Part shown: in pieces, positions 12,614-24,237 of the stretch
Layout: every line of letters begins with the position of its first letter
How positions within the stretch are numbered: position 1 is the first letter of the stretch
Assembly (NCBI RefSeq): GCF_023920105.1
Contig: NZ_CP083693.1
Coordinates: 112,501 to 176,500, forward strand
Source: Bartonella taylorii
GTDB taxonomy: Bacteria; Pseudomonadota; Alphaproteobacteria; Rhizobiales; Rhizobiaceae
Length of the DNA: 64,000 nt
Direction: 5' to 3'
The notes under the pieces: generated by a model
Told to the model about the DNA's origin: nothing
Seen by the model: only the letters and a program-made list of their open reading frames with translations
The model's database searches: none
Made by a program: the position numbers and the translations under genes

Positions 12614-14242
12614 ATGAGCATAACCACAGTTTTGACTATGGCTTTTAATGATCAAAAACTGGGTACGTCTGGTTTGCGCAAAAAAATATCGGTTTTTCAA
12701 CAGCCTCATTATGTTGAAAATTTTATTCAATCCATTTTTAATAGCATTGGGCCTATGGAAGGGAAATTGTTAATTCTTGGTGGTGATGGGCGCTATTTCA
12801 ACCTTACCCTTCTTCAGACTGTATTGAAAATGGCAGCGGCTCACGGTGTTGCTTGTGTAAAAGTTGGAAGAGGGGGTATTCTTTCCACGCCTGCTGTTTC
12901 ACATCTTATTCGCAAATATCATGCCCATGGTGGGATTATTCTCTCAGCAAGTCACAATCCTGGTGGTTTAGAGGGGGATTGTGGCATCAAATACAATATT
13001 TCTCATGGTGGTCCTGCTCCTGATTCTTTGTGTGAAGCTATTTTTGCAGCGTCACAACATCTTGCTTTTTATAAAACTTTTGAAGCTCCAGACGTTGATT
13101 TAGACAGAGAAGGAACGACCTTTATCGGGTCTATGCGGGTGGAAATACTTGATCCGGTAGCTGATTATGTTGCTTTGATGCAGGAGATTTTTGACTTTGA
13201 TTGTATTGCTCGAGCAGTAGAAAGAGGTTTAACCTTACGCTTTGATGCAATGCATGCCGTCACAGGGCCTTATGCGCGCGAAATTTTTGAGAAATGTTTA
13301 GGGTTTTCGGAAGGAACGGTGGTCAATGGTATTCCTTTGCCAGATTTTGGAGGAGGGCATCCAGATCCCAATTTGGTTTATGCTAAGGCTCTTTATGATT
13401 TGTTAATGTCTGATAAAGCCCCTGATCTTGGCGCGGCATCTGATGGTGATGGAGATCGTAATCTCATTATTGGTCGTAGGCAATTTGTCACGCCTTCTGA
13501 TTCTTTGGCTATTATGGCTGAACATGCACATCTGATTAAAGGTTATCGCCAAGGCATTGTGGGGATTGCCCGATCTATGCCAACAGCGCGTGCCGTTGAT
13601 CTGGTTGCTGAAAAAAAAGGATTGAATTGTTTTGAGACGCCAACAGGGTGGAAGTTTTTTGCGTCACTTTTGGATGCGGGGAAAGTGACTTTTTGTGGTG
13701 AAGAAAGCTTTGGAACTGGCTCTCATCATATCCGCGAAAAAGATGGTTTATGGGCTGTGTTATTTTGGCTCAATCTTTTAGCGGTGACAGGGAAATCTGT
13801 CGCACAAATTGTTCAACAACATTGGTGCACTTATGGGCGTTTTTACACTTCGCGCCATGATTATGAAGGTGTGGAGAGTGATAAAGCAGAAGCGATTATA
13901 GAACGATTACGTGCACATTTGCCACAAGTGGGAACAGAAATTGCTGGATTAGAGGTCGAAAAAGCAGACGATTTTACTTATCATGATCCCATTGATCAGA
14001 GTGCTAGCACAAAGCAAGGTATCCGTGTTTTTTTCAAGAATGGTGCACGATTAGTGATACGCTTATCGGGAACAGGGACGGTGGGAGCTACTTTACGGCT
14101 TTATTTTGAGCAATACGAAGGAAATCTACACAAACACAATCAAGATCCGCAAAAAGTTCTCCGACCTTTGCAACAAGCGGCACTTCAATTGTTAAATATG
14201 CAACAAGAATTTGGTCGTGAACATCCCGATGTTATCACATGA
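12614..14242 (+). CDS. pgm: Phosphoglucomutase
   Basis: Interconverts glucose 1-phosphate and glucose 6-phosphate, supplying nucleotide sugars for envelope glycans and glycogen. Family landmarks are FNDQKLGTSGLRKK at the N-terminus, the phosphoserine loop SASHNPGG near residue 115, the metal site DGDGDRN near residue 278, the sugar-binding GEESFGTGSHH near residue 360, and the C-terminal phosphate loop RLSGTGT near residue 480. GTG 12608 is in frame, but ATG 12614 has the ribosome site gaagg at the right distance. About 542 residues, normal for the alpha-D-phosphohexomutase Pgm group. Confidence 0.93.
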   Translation: MSITTVLTMAFNDQKLGTSGLRKKISVFQQPHYVENFIQSIFNSIGPMEGKLLILGGDGRYFNLTLLQTVLKMAAAHGVACVKVGRGGILSTPAVSHLIRKYHAHGGIILSASHNPGGLEGDCGIKYNISHGGPAPDSLCEAIFAASQHLAFYKTFEAPDVDLDREGTTFIGSMRVEILDPVADYVALMQEIFDFDCIARAVERGLTLRFDAMHAVTGPYAREIFEKCLGFSEGTVVNGIPLPDFGGGHPDPNLVYAKALYDLLMSDKAPDLGAASDGDGDRNLIIGRRQFVTPSDSLAIMAEHAHLIKGYRQGIVGIARSMPTARAVDLVAEKKGLNCFETPTGWKFFASLLDAGKVTFCGEESFGTGSHHIREKDGLWAVLFWLNLLAVTGKSVAQIVQQHWCTYGRFYTSRHDYEGVESDKAEAIIERLRAHLPQVGTEIAGLEVEKADDFTYHDPIDQSASTKQGIRVFFKNGARLVIRLSGTGTVGATLRLYFEQYEGNLHKHNQDPQKVLRPLQQAALQLLNMQQEFGREHPDVIT

Positions 14243-18348: not shown

Positions 18349-18937
18349 TTTCTCTTTTTTGACAGCTGCTGGAAAAGAAGCCTTGAATCAGGAAAGTTCC
18401 GGCGGGGTATAGATTATTAATGCACAAAATAAAGCAATTCTACTCAGACTCGTTGATGCTCGCGTTTTTATTGGAAAATAAGGTTGCTCTATCTTATCGT
18501 TGGTGTTAGAAGATTTTGCTCTTTCTACATGCTTTTTTCTTTTACGGAATGAAGTGTTTTTATCCTGTTGTGCCGTAAAATACTGTCGTTTATGGTAGCG
18601 ATATAAGGTAAACTTTACCCATGCAGTGTTTTTTATTCAAGAGTGTGGTGAATATTCAGGGCAGGGCTTGTTTGTAGAATCTTGTAAAATGAAGTGCATG
18701 AGTGAGAAGGCAAGGAGAACCGGCCTTAAGAGAAGCCCGATTAGTTACAGACCGTTTGGCAGGAATCATCGTCCTTTAGGGTGGAGGGAAGTTAAAACAG
18801 ATACCCAAGTATTTATAACAGGCGTATTTAAGTGCACATGGTTGAAAATAAAAACTGTTCACTATGCGTAAGAGGCTGGGCTTTAAAAAAATATCCACGA
18901 ATGCTACTGAACAGAGAGTGTAGATCTCTCCATAATG
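18349..18937. other. Intergenic region between groEL and the Xre regulator
   Basis: No supported gene. An 81-codon open frame on the plus strand (18626-18871) has no family features. At 18571-18612 a 42-bp stretch resembles 23010-23050, just behind the phage ATPase pseudogene. At about 18645-18665 the words atattcagggcagggcttg resemble atatttagggcaggacttg near 55499-55517. These may be traces of dispersed repeats. Confidence 0.4.
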
Positions 18938-19339
18938 TTAAAAGTTTTCATTTTGATCAGCGATGAGTTGTAAAATTGCTCTTTGTTTTACAGATGTTAA
19001 AACTCTAAATCTTTTTAAAAGCAGATATTCCTCTCTGCTCGATATTAGCTCATCATGTTGGTATGGGATTTCTTGTTTTGTTAAGACATCAGTGTAAAAA
19101 AAGGTAAGTGGAACGCTCAGGATATCGGCAATATCTTTCAGGCGCCCTGCGCTCACACGATTTAAGCCTGTTTCATATTTTTGAACTTGTTGGTAGCTTA
19201 CACTTAAAGCATGCGCTAATTCTTTTTGAGACATTTTTAGCATTTTTCGCCTAAAACGAATTCTCTTGCCTACAAAAATGTCGTTGAGAGTTTTGGTTTG
19301 CACTTTAGAGCTCCCCGTCGGTTGCGAGCGCCCTCGCAT
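18938..19339 (-). CDS. Xre-family HTH regulator (Trp-type, Brt-linked)
   Basis: A 133-residue DNA-binding protein with a classical Cro/C1 helix-turn-helix at about residues 26-80: GKRIRFRRKMLKMSQKEL, then SVSYQQVQKYETG and SAGRLKDIADILSV. The C-terminal 50 residues form a small charged helical tail. The start at 19339 lies inside the conserved RNA element upstream, so the RNA and the coding region overlap; an internal Met near residue 33 would cut the first helix. In B. henselae, small Xre proteins (Trp) are encoded in tandem with Brt RNAs and act on expression of the adhesin gene badA; this gene has the same arrangement. Its targets here are unknown. Confidence 0.8.
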   Translation of the reverse strand: MRGRSQPTGSSKVQTKTLNDIFVGKRIRFRRKMLKMSQKELAHALSVSYQQVQKYETGLNRVSAGRLKDIADILSVPLTFFYTDVLTKQEIPYQHDELISSREEYLLLKRFRVLTSVKQRAILQLIADQNENF

Positions 19340-21186: not shown

Positions 21187-21678
21187 CTAGGCAATAGATT
21201 CAATATCTTCATCCGCAAGATTGCTCGGAATGACGGTGACAGGGATTGAAAAAGCTGTTCCCCGATTACCGATGAGTTGGATAAGCGGTCCTGGACCTTC
21301 TGTATGCTCACTGGCTGCTAAAACAATAAGTGAGATTTCTTTATCTTCGTCGATCAGTTTGGAAATTTCATCAATTTTCTCACCTTCACGTATAACAATT
21401 TCTGTTTCAAGGTCATGTGTGGTGCGTACATCATTAGCAATTTCTCCCAACACTTTATGAGCACTTTGCGTTGATTCTGTACGCATAATGTTGTTTACAC
21501 CTAGAAAATGTTGAAATTCTACGCTGTCAACAACACAGAGCAATACTAATGTTCTGTTGGTATTTTTGGCATGTTGTACAGCAAAAGCAACGGCACGCCG
21601 ATGTTCTGGTGTTTCATCGATAATCACTAAAATTTTTCGCTTATGCTCTGCTTTTGCATCTTTTCGCTTAGAAGCCAT
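21187..21678 (-). CDS. Universal stress protein (UspA family)
   Basis: A 163-residue single USP domain. The N-terminal strand KRKILVIIDETPEHRRAV and the late segment LIVLAASEHTEGPGPLIQLIGN are typical; the C-terminal SIPVTVIPSNL ends the domain. The nucleotide-binding G-x2-G-x9-G-S/T pattern is imperfect, so ATP binding is uncertain. The ribosome site GGAGGAGG precedes ATG. Likely transcribed with the Nfu gene downstream. Confidence 0.88.
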   Translation of the reverse strand: MASKRKDAKAEHKRKILVIIDETPEHRRAVAFAVQHAKNTNRTLVLLCVVDSVEFQHFLGVNNIMRTESTQSAHKVLGEIANDVRTTHDLETEIVIREGEKIDEISKLIDEDKEISLIVLAASEHTEGPGPLIQLIGNRGTAFSIPVTVIPSNLADEDIESIA

Positions 21679-21870
21679 GTGCTTCCTCCTCCTTTTTTAG
21701 TGAAAATATTTCAAATCAACCTTGTTCAAATATCTAAGTAAAGGTAACTTGGAAAAAGTTTCAATAGAATTTTTCAGATAGCGCAATTTTAGAGAAAAAT
21801 TAAATAAGTGGGTCTTTAAAAGAAGCTCCTGTGAAATTATATTATGAATTAAATATTAATATTTTTTAAA

Positions 21871-22983
21871 ATGGCGGGGGACAAAGAGTTGTACTACGAT
21901 TTAAACAAAGCGCTTTCCTATAATGCACTATGGAATTTTTTAGATAGTAATAGAGGATTAGGAAAAACATTTAGCGCGTTACGTTTTGTTTGTAATGCTT
22001 ACAAAAAAAGAAATGAACAATTCATATACGTACGTCGCACACAAAAAGAAATTCAACATGTAAAAGATACGATGTTTATTGCTTTAGAAAAAGAAGGCAT
22101 TATTAAACCATGTGAATTTAGATGCAAAGGTGAAGATATCCTTTATAATTCAGAAATTTACTTAGATGAGTTAGAAAAGTTCTCTCAAGGTAGAGAAGAA
22201 ACTGAAGCAAAAATCAGTACAAAAATATCATACAGACTACCACCTCTATTTAAAGCAAAAAATGACATGCTTTGCGGATATTTAATCCCTCTATCTTTAG
22301 TTAACCAATACAAACATCGCTCCTTCTCTAATGTTAAAACAATCATTTTTGATGAATATATTTGTGAACAAGGAAAATATTTAAAGAATGAACCGGAAAA
22401 ATTAATTAGTCTATGTGAAACCGTATTTAGGCTCCGTGATGATGTTCGTATAATATGCCTTGGTAACAGCGTATCACATTATAATCCTTATTTCGATTTT
22501 TTTGATTTAAGAAATCATCATACTAATGAATTTTCATTCTTTCGTAAAAAATTAATTTTAGTAGGTCATACCTTCGGAAAAGAATTTATTTAAATAAAGT
22601 CTGATACAAAATTTGCTAAATCAATTAAAGATACAGTATATGGATCATTCGTATTAGATAATAATGCTATTAATATTAATGATGATTATTCATTCATTGA
22701 TAAAATGAAATCAATGCCAGAAAGACCTTATTTTAACTTAATCATTCAAAACCAAAAATTAGCTGTCTTTTTTGCATCTGATAAATTGTTCATTAAAAAA
22801 GGTTTTAATAAAGATTATATTACCTACAGTATGGATAACACTTTATACGAAGGTGCAATTAAAGGAAGCATTTCAAAAGATCGCAAACTTAAACAATTAG
22901 CTAAATTTATAAGATATGGTGATGTTTGTTTTGAAACAATGGATGTTAAAAGAGTTATGCAACCATTCATCAAAAAGGTTTAA
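21871..22983 (+). pseudogene. phi29-type DNA packaging (encapsidation) ATPase, broken by one stop
   Basis: The frame runs 371 codons with one internal TAA at 22591-22593. The first 240 residues hold YYDLNKALSYNALWNF, the P-loop SNRGLGKTFSALRF, EQFIYVRRTQKE, the Walker B TIIFDEYIC, and then VFRLRDDVRIICLGNS and NPYFDFFDL. These follow, in order, the blocks I recall from gene product 16 of phage phi29 (EQFIYVRR, FDEF, VFRNRERVRCICLSN, NPYF). That ATPase drives DNA into the prohead. After the stop the same frame continues to TAA 22983. The gene is visibly AT-richer than its neighbours and rich in Lys/Asn/Ile, a sign of transfer. No capsid, portal or terminal protein genes lie beside it. Confidence 0.8.
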
Positions 22984-23166
22984 AATAAGAAAATCAATTA
23001 TCTCTACTATGCTGTAAAATATCGTTGTTTATGGCAATGATGTAAGGCATAAGAAAGATAATCAAGGTCTCTTGTGTGAGGGGGCGTCTTTTGTAAAGGG
23101 GAAAGATATTTTCTCAAAATTCGAGTATAACTTCTTTTTTTATTTTTTACAGCTACTTTCATTATC

Positions 23167-24237
23167 TCATGCCTTGTGCAAAAATCCAACGATTTTACGG
23201 ATTTTTTTCATATTTTTTTCTGCTAGAGCACTGGCACGTTGTGCACCATCGTGCAAAACAGAGTCAATATAAGCATTTTCTTGATGCAGTCGACGCAATT
23301 CCCCTGTTATGGGTGCAAGCTTATAGACGGCAAGGTCAGCTAAGGCTGTTTTGAAAAGCGAAAATTGTTTTCCAGAAAACTCTAAAAGGGCCTTTTCTTT
23401 ACTTACTTCTGCAAAAGCTGCATAAATACCAAGCAGATTGTCAATCTCTGGTCGTCCTTCTAAAGCTTCTAATGTGTCGGGGAGAGGAGCGGAATCGGTT
23501 TTTGCTTTGCGTATTTTTTTTGCAATAAGATCAGCATCATCGGTCAAATTAATGCGTGAAAAATCTGAAGGATCTGATTTTGACATTTTTTTTGTACCAT
23601 CGCGCAAGGACATTATACGCATGGCTGTTTTTCCTATCAGTGCTTCTGGCATTGGGAAAAAGCCTTGTCTTTTTTCCTCATTCATTTGCATTGAAATATC
23701 AAAATTTAAATCTGCAATGCGGTCAGCATAATCATTATTGAATTTTTGCGCAATATCGCGGGTGAGTTCAACATGCTGTTTTTGATCTTCACCCACCGGA
23801 ACGTGTGTGGCACGATAGAGTAAAATATCGGCTGCCATAAGACTTGGATAAGCGAAAAGTCCTAGGGACGCTTTTTCACGATCTTTTCCTGCTTTATCTT
23901 TAAATTGTGTCATGCGTTGGAGCCAGCCGATACGGGCGATACAATTTAAAATCCATGCAAGTTCGGCATGTTGAAAAACCTGAGACTGGTTGAAAATAAT
24001 GTGTTTTTGAGGATCGATTCCAGCAGCTAAAAAAGCGGCTGTGGCTGCTCTGGTTGATGCACTTAAAGTTTGTGGATCTGGGTTCACTGTAAGTGCATGC
24101 ATATCAACAACGCAATATAGACAATTATAAGATGTTTGCAGCTCAACCCAATGCTTTATGGCTCCAAGATAATTGCCAAGATGTAAGTTACCACTCGGTT
24201 GTACGCCGGAAAAGACAAGCGGTGTAAAGGTGCCCAT
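23167..24237 (-). CDS. trpS: Tryptophanyl-tRNA synthetase
   Basis: Class I synthetase that charges tRNA-Trp. The HIGH-type motif appears as [10 protein letters not shown] near residues 16-25, and the KMSKS loop as KKMSKSDPS near 216-224. [17 protein letters not shown] near 153 is the standard tryptophan-site region. 356 residues, normal length. It lies 77 bp downstream of murJ on the same strand; the two may be co-transcribed. Confidence 0.96.

What the first reader, a model, noticed from the sequence alone, without database searches (positions are those of the whole stretch)
21871..22983. phi29-type DNA packaging ATPase stranded in an alpha-proteobacterial chromosome
The translated blocks LSYNALWNF, EQFIYVRR, a P-loop, IIFDEY, VFRLRDDVRIICLGN and NPYFDFFDL follow the order of the packaging ATPase gp16 of phi29-like phages, which are known mainly from Gram-positive hosts and mollicutes. 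It is visibly AT-richer than the flanking usp and trpS genes, stands alone, and has a single internal TAA. It suggests transfer from an unknown small podovirus, or domestication followed by decay.
Basis: partly seen in the sequence, partly recalled or inferred. Interest (0 to 1): 0.72.

Follow-up and report, generated by a model that had tools for sequence, protein, structure and literature searches.

The report
Decayed captured phi29-type packaging gene
A broken copy of a phi29-type phage DNA-packaging motor gene sits alone in this Bartonella chromosome, and it is one of several single genes of an unseen phi29-like phage that Bartonella species seem to have captured, kept for a time, exchanged and lost.

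Summary
Confirmed: window 21889-22983 (+) encodes a phi29 gp16-type packaging ATPase with one internal TAA (22591-22593), which aligns with phi29 residue 197, about the end of the ATPase domain. It is AT-rich (27% GC) and has no phage neighbour.

It is not a one-off. 25 of 71 Bartonella genomes hold gp16 or a remnant, in 22 of the 24 read at one orthologous place (glsB/ubiC). The usp/trpS place of the window is a second site. There, between species, gp16 dN/dS is 0.24-0.30 at dS 0.41-0.50 (flanking genes 0.57-0.71), so it was probably kept by selection on the chromosome before it broke. The same gap holds a phi29-type capsid gene in two other species and is empty in 25 of 31 examined.

Lone phi29-type capsid genes (14 of 71), a truncated portal gene (2 of 71, this genome included) and polymerase genes (6 of 71) also occur; 34 of 71 genomes carry at least one. 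Of 385 sampled alphaproteobacterial genomes only this one matched gp16.

Best reading: single-gene captures from an unsampled phi29-like phage, kept for a chromosomal role, then lost. Interference with related phages is my favoured role; it is inferred, not shown.

The parts
21889..22593 (+). gp16-type packaging ATPase, N-terminal ATPase domain (234 codons from TTG), ended by TAA 22591-22593
   Evidence: PF05894 3.7e-36, PHROG 2150 1.2e-48; last residue aligns with phi29 residue 197; start by comparison with DB5-6
22594..22983 (+). C-terminal part of the same gene, after the stop
   Evidence: PHROG 2150 positions 213-338, 7.8e-4; 87.5% aa identity to DB5-6
21700..21888 (+). leader between usp and gp16, shared with the other usp/trpS carriers (gp16 or capsid) and not seen in empty sites
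   Evidence: BLASTN 94% DB5-6, 84% G037 and ML69XJBT, 80% G033, 76% G036; empty sites printed
22984..23166 (+). tail between gp16 and trpS, shared by the gp16 carriers
   Evidence: BLASTN 86% DB5-6, 83% G037, 77% ML69XJBT
23010..23032 (+). copy of a 23-base dispersed repeat (1 mismatch) just after gp16
   Evidence: 2 matches in the window against 0.03 expected; exact matches in 18 of 151 loci
21187..21678 (-). usp, flanking gene
   Evidence: ORF; orthologues in 63 of 71 Bartonella genomes
23167..24237 (-). trpS, flanking gene
   Evidence: ORF; next to usp in empty sites

Best explanation
The gene is a recently broken chromosomal copy of a phi29-type DNA-packaging ATPase. An ancestor of this Bartonella clade took it, as a single gene with a short leader, from a phi29-like phage lineage that has not been sampled, or moved it from the older glsB/ubiC copy. 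Shown: family; a second chromosomal site; sister copies; one stop; low dN/dS between chromosomal copies; alternative contents (gp16, capsid, nothing) of one intergenic gap in near relatives. Inferred: the role. I think the lone proteins (capsid, portal N-part, ATPase with altered Walker motifs, polymerase cut to its exonuclease part) act as faulty subunits that poison assembly or replication of related phages, an endogenous-virus type of immunity, and are lost when it is not needed. My odds: family 0.97; phage origin 0.9; kept by selection on the chromosome 0.75; anti-phage role 0.35.
For: Profiles and solved relatives. Bartonella sequences form one clade (100/100) apart from 13 phages. 25 of 71 Bartonella genomes carry gp16 or a remnant, 22 of the 24 read at glsB/ubiC. 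At usp/trpS, dN/dS is 0.24 (DB5-6 v ML69XJBT), 0.27 (DB5-6 v G037) and 0.30 (window piece v G037) at dS 0.41-0.50, flanks 0.57-0.71; codon-model omega 0.16-0.18. Walker A Ser in 4 of 5 and Walker B Glu in 2 of 5 Bartonella proteins, in 0 of 13 phages. Same gap: capsid in G033 and G036, empty in 25 of 31. Truncated portal and exonuclease-only polymerase frames.
Against: No phage of this kind is known for Bartonella and no function was tested. In the closest pair (window v DB5-6) gp16 dS is 0.06-0.15 against 0.19-0.31 in flanks, so some exchange rather than plain descent is possible. G035 v G062 gives dN/dS 0.79 (0.28-3.80), uninformative; the portal pair gives 0.63 (0.40-1.04); capsid omega is about 1 and most pairs lie inside the neutral range. 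D to E and G to S are mild changes that may leave ATPase activity. Many copies are decayed.
Confidence: 0.5

Rival explanations
1. Neutral fossil: pieces of a lytic phi29-like phage genome joined into intergenic gaps by illegitimate recombination and simply decay; the conserved protein sequence dates from before capture.
For: Most glsB/ubiC copies are N-terminal remnants with several stops; the window, G037, G019 and G025 copies are broken; portal dN/dS 0.63 with CI to 1.04; capsid omega about 1.
Against: Copies that share place, leader and tail still give dN/dS 0.24-0.30; five capsid frames stay open although neutral change would bring about 4 stops per 80 changes.
Confidence: 0.28
2. Co-option for a host process other than defence, for example a helper of the gene transfer agent BaGTA or a DNA translocation task.
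For: Low dN/dS. A 2019 review says BaGTA packages by a yet unknown mechanism (PMC6899734, passages).
Against: BaGTA has its own capsid, portal and large terminase and is kept in all genomes of the 2013 study (PMC3610622, passages), whereas gp16 is in 25 of 71 and mostly broken.
Confidence: 0.1
3. Leftover of a whole phi29-like prophage or plasmid phage that once sat at these places and lost its other genes.
For: Two phi29-type genes at the same gap in different species; likely terminal protein and polymerase still side by side in G066 and G004; phi29-like phage plasmids exist in Enterococcus (20 records).
Against: No carrier read shows another phi29-type gene beside gp16 or capsid; gp16 and capsid lie on opposite strands at usp/trpS, unlike one late operon; the genes lie at many separate places.
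Confidence: 0.12
4. The window copy is not dead: the TAA is a sequencing error, or the 234-residue ATPase-domain product is itself the working form.
For: One stop and no other lesion in this genome's copy; it falls at about the ATPase-domain end, where ML69XJBT has an in-frame linker deletion; dN/dS 0.30 and 0.42 on the two sides.
Against: The part after the stop has diverged more (87.5% against 95.7% aa identity to DB5-6); the other two copies in G037 and G019 are clearly broken. Reads were not available.
Confidence: 0.13

Closest known systems
phi29 gp16 packaging ATPase (PF05894; PDB 7jqq, 5hd9)
   Same: Two-part protein in the same order; profile 3.7e-36 for the first piece; 34% identity over 94% of it
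   Different: Chromosomal, alone, broken; Walker A Ser (and Walker B Glu in the glsB/ubiC copies); no packaging RNA found by Rfam nearby
Rhizobium phage RHph_N3_8 (18.3 kb, phi29-like)
   Same: gp16, capsid, portal and polymerase of the same families
   Different: Complete phage; gp16 about 29% identical; its Rhizobium host is called questionable (PMC11476376, passages)
Bartonella gene transfer agent BaGTA
   Same: Phage-derived genes held in Bartonella chromosomes
   Different: One conserved cluster with its own terminase, portal and capsid in all genomes of that study (PMC3610622, passages)
Endogenous-virus restriction genes of animals such as Fv1 (recalled; PMC6361761 seen as listing and abstract only)
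   Same: Single captured viral structural genes, patchy between species
   Different: Those are tested and eukaryotic; here only the genomic pattern is seen

Membership tests
Podovirus gp16 packaging ATPase (PF05894) | Profile match above the curated cut-off | tested here: met
   125.6 bits against a cut-off of 25 for the first piece
Podovirus gp16 packaging ATPase (PF05894) | Walker A and Walker B | tested here: inconclusive
   GKT and DE present in the window copy, but Walker A begins with Ser in 4 of 5 Bartonella proteins, in 0 of 13 phages
Podovirus gp16 packaging ATPase (PF05894) | C-terminal domain in one chain | tested here: not met
   Present only after the stop in the window; in one chain in DB5-6, G035 and G062
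Podovirus gp16 packaging ATPase (PF05894) | Lies in a phage late operon with packaging RNA in the phage | tested here: not met
   No phage neighbour; no Rfam packaging-RNA match in the window stretch or six loci
Podovirus gp16 packaging ATPase (PF05894) | Packages DNA into a prohead | not testable with these tools
   Needs a bench test
HerA/FtsK ATPases | Best profile match in that family | tested here: not met
   Not among the matches up to E 1
BaGTA | Part of the conserved GTA cluster | tested here: not met
   Lone gene, in 25 of 71 genomes; BaGTA has its own terminase (PMC3610622)
Prophage | Neighbouring phage genes | tested here: not met
   None beside gp16 in the window or in the G035, G019 and G025 loci
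Endogenous-virus restriction gene | Blocks a related virus | not testable with these tools
   No phi29-like phage of Bartonella is known to me or was found

The most novel reading that the evidence does not exclude
Bartonella keeps a bacterial counterpart of animal endogenous-virus immunity: single genes of a protein-primed phi29-like phage (capsid, portal, packaging ATPase, likely terminal protein with a truncated polymerase) are captured one or two at a time, altered or truncated into dominant-negative subunits, swapped between species as alternative contents of one locus, and lost when not needed. They would also be the only record of a phage family nobody has isolated.
Probability: 0.3. 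Interest if true: 0.88.

Novelty: new variant of a known kind. Interest (0 to 1): 0.62.

Why it matters
Phi29-like phages replicate with a terminal protein and most are lytic, without an integrase (recalled), so their genes are not expected as fixtures of chromosomes. Here four or five of them are scattered over one genus, and at least gp16 seems to have been kept by selection. That is a fossil record of an unseen Bartonella phage lineage and a directly testable case of phage genes turned against phages. I found no report of it in my paper searches (open-licence papers only); the main text of the 2024 review of phi29-like phages has no occurrence of 'Bartonella' (PMC11476376).

Tried and rejected
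Head-genes-only bias: I first read the set as capsid, portal and ATPase only, because the polymerase family gave 0 of 7 Bartonella carriers. The search of all 71 genomes found it in 6, so I dropped that claim.

One dispersed gene transfer agent made of these genes: rejected, because none of the four genomes with unbroken gp16 (G023, G035, G062, G067) is among the 14 with a capsid match.

Packaging RNA near gp16: none by Rfam (one sub-threshold sroH match, none). Structured RNA in the capsid leader: only 10 of 97 predicted pairs have a two-sided change, -29.3 kcal/mol over 646 columns.

One recombination cassette for all lone genes: the usp/trpS leader was not found in the other loci searched. 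Capsid genes outside usp/trpS do share roughly 450-500 bp of upstream DNA (8 loci), and a 23-base dispersed repeat lies near capsid genes and after gp16, but it also occurs at 18571 in the window, so I do not call it the mechanism.

Structure prediction from two sequences was useless (mean pLDDT 30.4); no fold search was made. Scans of IMG/VR for a donor phage: gp16 gave 3 relatives at 29-30% identity, capsid, polymerase and terminal protein none. Plasmids: 20 records, all Enterococcus. The tail-knob search (0 of 71) had no positive control of its own; the Rhizobium phage tail protein does match that family (1.4e-97). The comparison of the G033 and G036 capsids misaligned (25% identity, dS not computed) and is not used.

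Limits: neighbours of gp16 were read for 24 of 25 carriers (not G054). Contents of usp/trpS were read for 31 of the 63 genomes with usp. The capsid codon model used the 5 intact copies outside usp/trpS and left out the G033 copy and the broken ones. Gene names such as GlsB/YeaQ, UbiC, CarA, ClpB, TolB, YebC and ThiE are recognised by me from the sequences and come from no call.

Full report
What is there. The piece before the stop is a phi29 gp16-type packaging ATPase: Pfam PF05894 3.7e-36 and PHROG 2150 1.2e-48; the next Pfam family is at 0.027. The piece after the stop matches the end of the same PHROG profile (7.8e-4, 213-338 of 341). By tblastn the first piece finds 131 of 50,697 phage records at E 1e-3 or better; the 20 rows listed are annotated as packaging, encapsidation, terminase, ATPase or morphogenesis proteins, and phi29 is at 34% identity over 94% of the query. 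An alignment of three Bartonella homologues finds the solved phi29-type motors 7jqq (9.9e-44), 5hd9 (3.7e-35) and 7jq6 (1.7e-11). The last residue before the stop aligns with phi29 residue 197; 5hd9 is a 194-residue chain covering the matched N-terminal part. The likely start is TTG 21889.

Where it sits. The window is G000:C1:112501-176500 of a single 1,939,282-base contig, and the PF05894 profile finds only this gene in it. The two named relatives found are Bartonella sp. DB5-6 (96%) and ML69XJBT (74%). A Bartonella alignment finds a second, decayed copy at G000:C1:393383-393710.

Distribution. With that alignment 25 of 71 Bartonella genomes match at E 0.001 or better (6 of 61 with PF05894). 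Frames without a stop over the whole or nearly the whole gene are in G023 (same sequence as DB5-6), G035, G062 and G067 (coordinates as in ML69XJBT). I read the neighbours of 24 of the 25. In 22 a copy, mostly an N-terminal remnant, lies at one orthologous place between a small GlsB/YeaQ-like gene and a UbiC-like gene near carA (on two contigs one outer neighbour was beyond the end). In four (window, G023, G067, G037) a copy lies between usp and trpS; the window and G023 have both. Outside the genus, PF05894 was found in 1 of 385 sampled alphaproteobacterial genomes, the window's own.

The usp/trpS gap. In 25 of 31 genomes examined the aligned ends of the two genes are about 30-75 bases apart, including G069, whose usp and trpS are 97% and 98.6% identical to the window's. 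In G033 and G036 the gap holds a phi29-type major capsid gene on the strand of usp and trpS, opposite to gp16; the G036 copy is broken. The leader next to usp is shared by gp16-type and capsid-type contents and is not seen in the six empty sites printed. In G033 its homology ends just before the gp16 ribosome site. In a tree of usp and downstream DNA, G000 (gp16) and G069 (empty) are sisters with G033 (capsid) next to them, and G067 (gp16) and G042 (empty) are sisters. So the content of the gap changes between near relatives. DNA between capsid and usp is 86% identical in G033 and G036 over 249 bp, while the G033 leader is 80% identical to that of its close relative G000; this suggests exchange of whole alleles, though differential loss from a two-gene insert is not excluded.

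Other lone phi29-type genes. The phi29 portal profile found a 210-residue frame at G000:C1:1927231-1927860, with a likely ribosome site, beside thiE. It matches only the first half of the profile (PHROG 2038, 13-151 of 314) and has a broken relative at the same place in G019: 2 of 71 genomes. The phi29-type capsid (PHROG 2006; Pfam PF25622, best 2.1e-21) is in 10 of 71 by profile and 14 of 71 by Bartonella alignment, two of them weak (3e-5, 2.7e-4); six frames are intact (378-390 residues), at four or more places. The protein-primed polymerase family PF03175 is in 6 of 71, not in the window's genome. In G004 a 183-residue frame holds only the exonuclease part; in G066 the first 150 or so residues of a 435-residue frame match it and the rest does not. 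Each follows a 286- or 299-residue frame that I take for the terminal protein by position alone (46% identical to each other; no clear family match). The tail-knob family gave 0 of 71, without a positive control. Over together, 34 of 71 genomes carry at least one of these genes (32 without the two weak capsid matches). None of the four genomes with unbroken gp16 has a capsid match.

Selection. At usp/trpS gp16 dS is 0.41 (DB5-6 v ML69XJBT) and 0.50 (DB5-6 v G037); usp and trpS between the window and the same two species give 0.57-0.71. So these copies seem to have parted on the chromosome, somewhat less diverged than their flanks, with dN/dS 0.24 (CI 0.17-0.35) and 0.27 (0.16-0.44). Codon models give omega 0.16-0.18 for three usp/trpS copies, 0.10-0.12 for the four intact gp16 proteins (whose long branch may lie partly in phages), 0.08 for trpS and 0.10-0.11 for usp. 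Against DB5-6 the window's two pieces give 0.30 (0.11-0.76) and 0.42 (0.21-0.95), in line with a recent break; but there gp16 dS is 0.06-0.15 against 0.19-0.31 in flanks, so exchange may have played a part. G035 and G062 differ at glsB/ubiC by dS 0.017 in gp16 and 0.17-0.22 in ubiC and carA, a sign of recent exchange of the gene; their dN/dS, 0.79 (0.28-3.80), says nothing. Capsid genes differ: omega 1.0-1.1 over five intact copies, pairwise 0.84-1.20 where neutral simulation gives medians 0.73-0.79 and 5-95% ranges within 0.55-1.09, so only the two highest pairs exceed it; yet the frames are open where 80 neutral changes would bring about four stops (1% of simulations without a stop). The portal pair is 0.63 (0.40-1.04).

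Motifs and origin. In a tree of 18 gp16 proteins the five Bartonella sequences form one clade (100/100) on a branch of 0.98; its neighbour, two small proteobacterial phages, is on a branch of 2.3 with weak joint support (86/92), so no close phage relative is known. Walker A begins with Ser in 4 of 5 Bartonella proteins and with Gly (12) or Ala (1) in 13 phages; both glsB/ubiC proteins have E for D in Walker B, none of the 13 phages does. ML69XJBT keeps Gly but lacks the stretch between the two domains.

How it most likely works. Shown: captured or copied single phi29-type genes, two places for gp16, low dN/dS between chromosomal copies, changing contents, decay. Inferred: the function. Faulty subunits of ring- or shell-forming proteins commonly poison assembly (recalled), and the changes seen (Walker substitutions, portal without its end, polymerase cut to its exonuclease part, ATPase domain alone in the window) are of that sort. 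I therefore favour interference with related phages, at about one in three, ahead of other co-option; neutral decay stays a serious rival. BaGTA does not seem to need this motor: it has its own terminase, portal and capsid (PMC3610622, passages), although a 2019 review calls its packaging mechanism yet unknown (PMC6899734, passages).

Prior knowledge. The 2024 review of phi29-like phages has no occurrence of 'Bartonella' in its main text and calls the Rhizobium host of RHph_N3_8 questionable (PMC11476376, passages). A B. grahamii paper describes lambda-, P2- and Mu-like phage genes and 29 copies of a gene similar to one of a Streptococcus thermophilus phage; the 12 of 46 places I saw name no phi29-like gene (PMC2697382, passages). 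The searches showed me no report of these relics (listings only).

Noticed in passing
L053:9232-9861 (own genome, G000:C1:1927231-1927860): Lone 210-residue phi29-type portal frame, first half of the profile only, beside thiE; broken relative at the same place in G019.
   Followed up: yes
L120, L121, L122, L123, L124, L126: Lone intact phi29-type capsid genes at four or more places, with a shared upstream stretch outside usp/trpS.
   Followed up: partly
L171:4774-6980 and L172:5691-7099: Likely terminal protein followed by a polymerase cut to its exonuclease part; in G066 the rest of the frame is unlike polymerase and looks to me like an ATP-grasp enzyme.
   Followed up: partly
L012:4491-5477 (Bartonella sp. 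ML69XJBT): gp16 with an in-frame loss of the stretch between the two domains (phi29 residues 191-219), next to where the window has its stop.
   Followed up: partly
window 18571-18593 and 23010-23032: 23-base dispersed repeat, also near many lone capsid genes.
   Followed up: partly
window 18938-19339; L053:8107-8508; L126:8611-11482: Repeated helix-turn-helix (XRE) genes with conserved flanking repeats, perhaps the 29-copy phage-like gene of B. grahamii.
   Followed up: no
L053:10096-10293 and 13784-13861; L080:8946-9143: Partial 3' duplicates beside thiE and ruvC.
   Followed up: no
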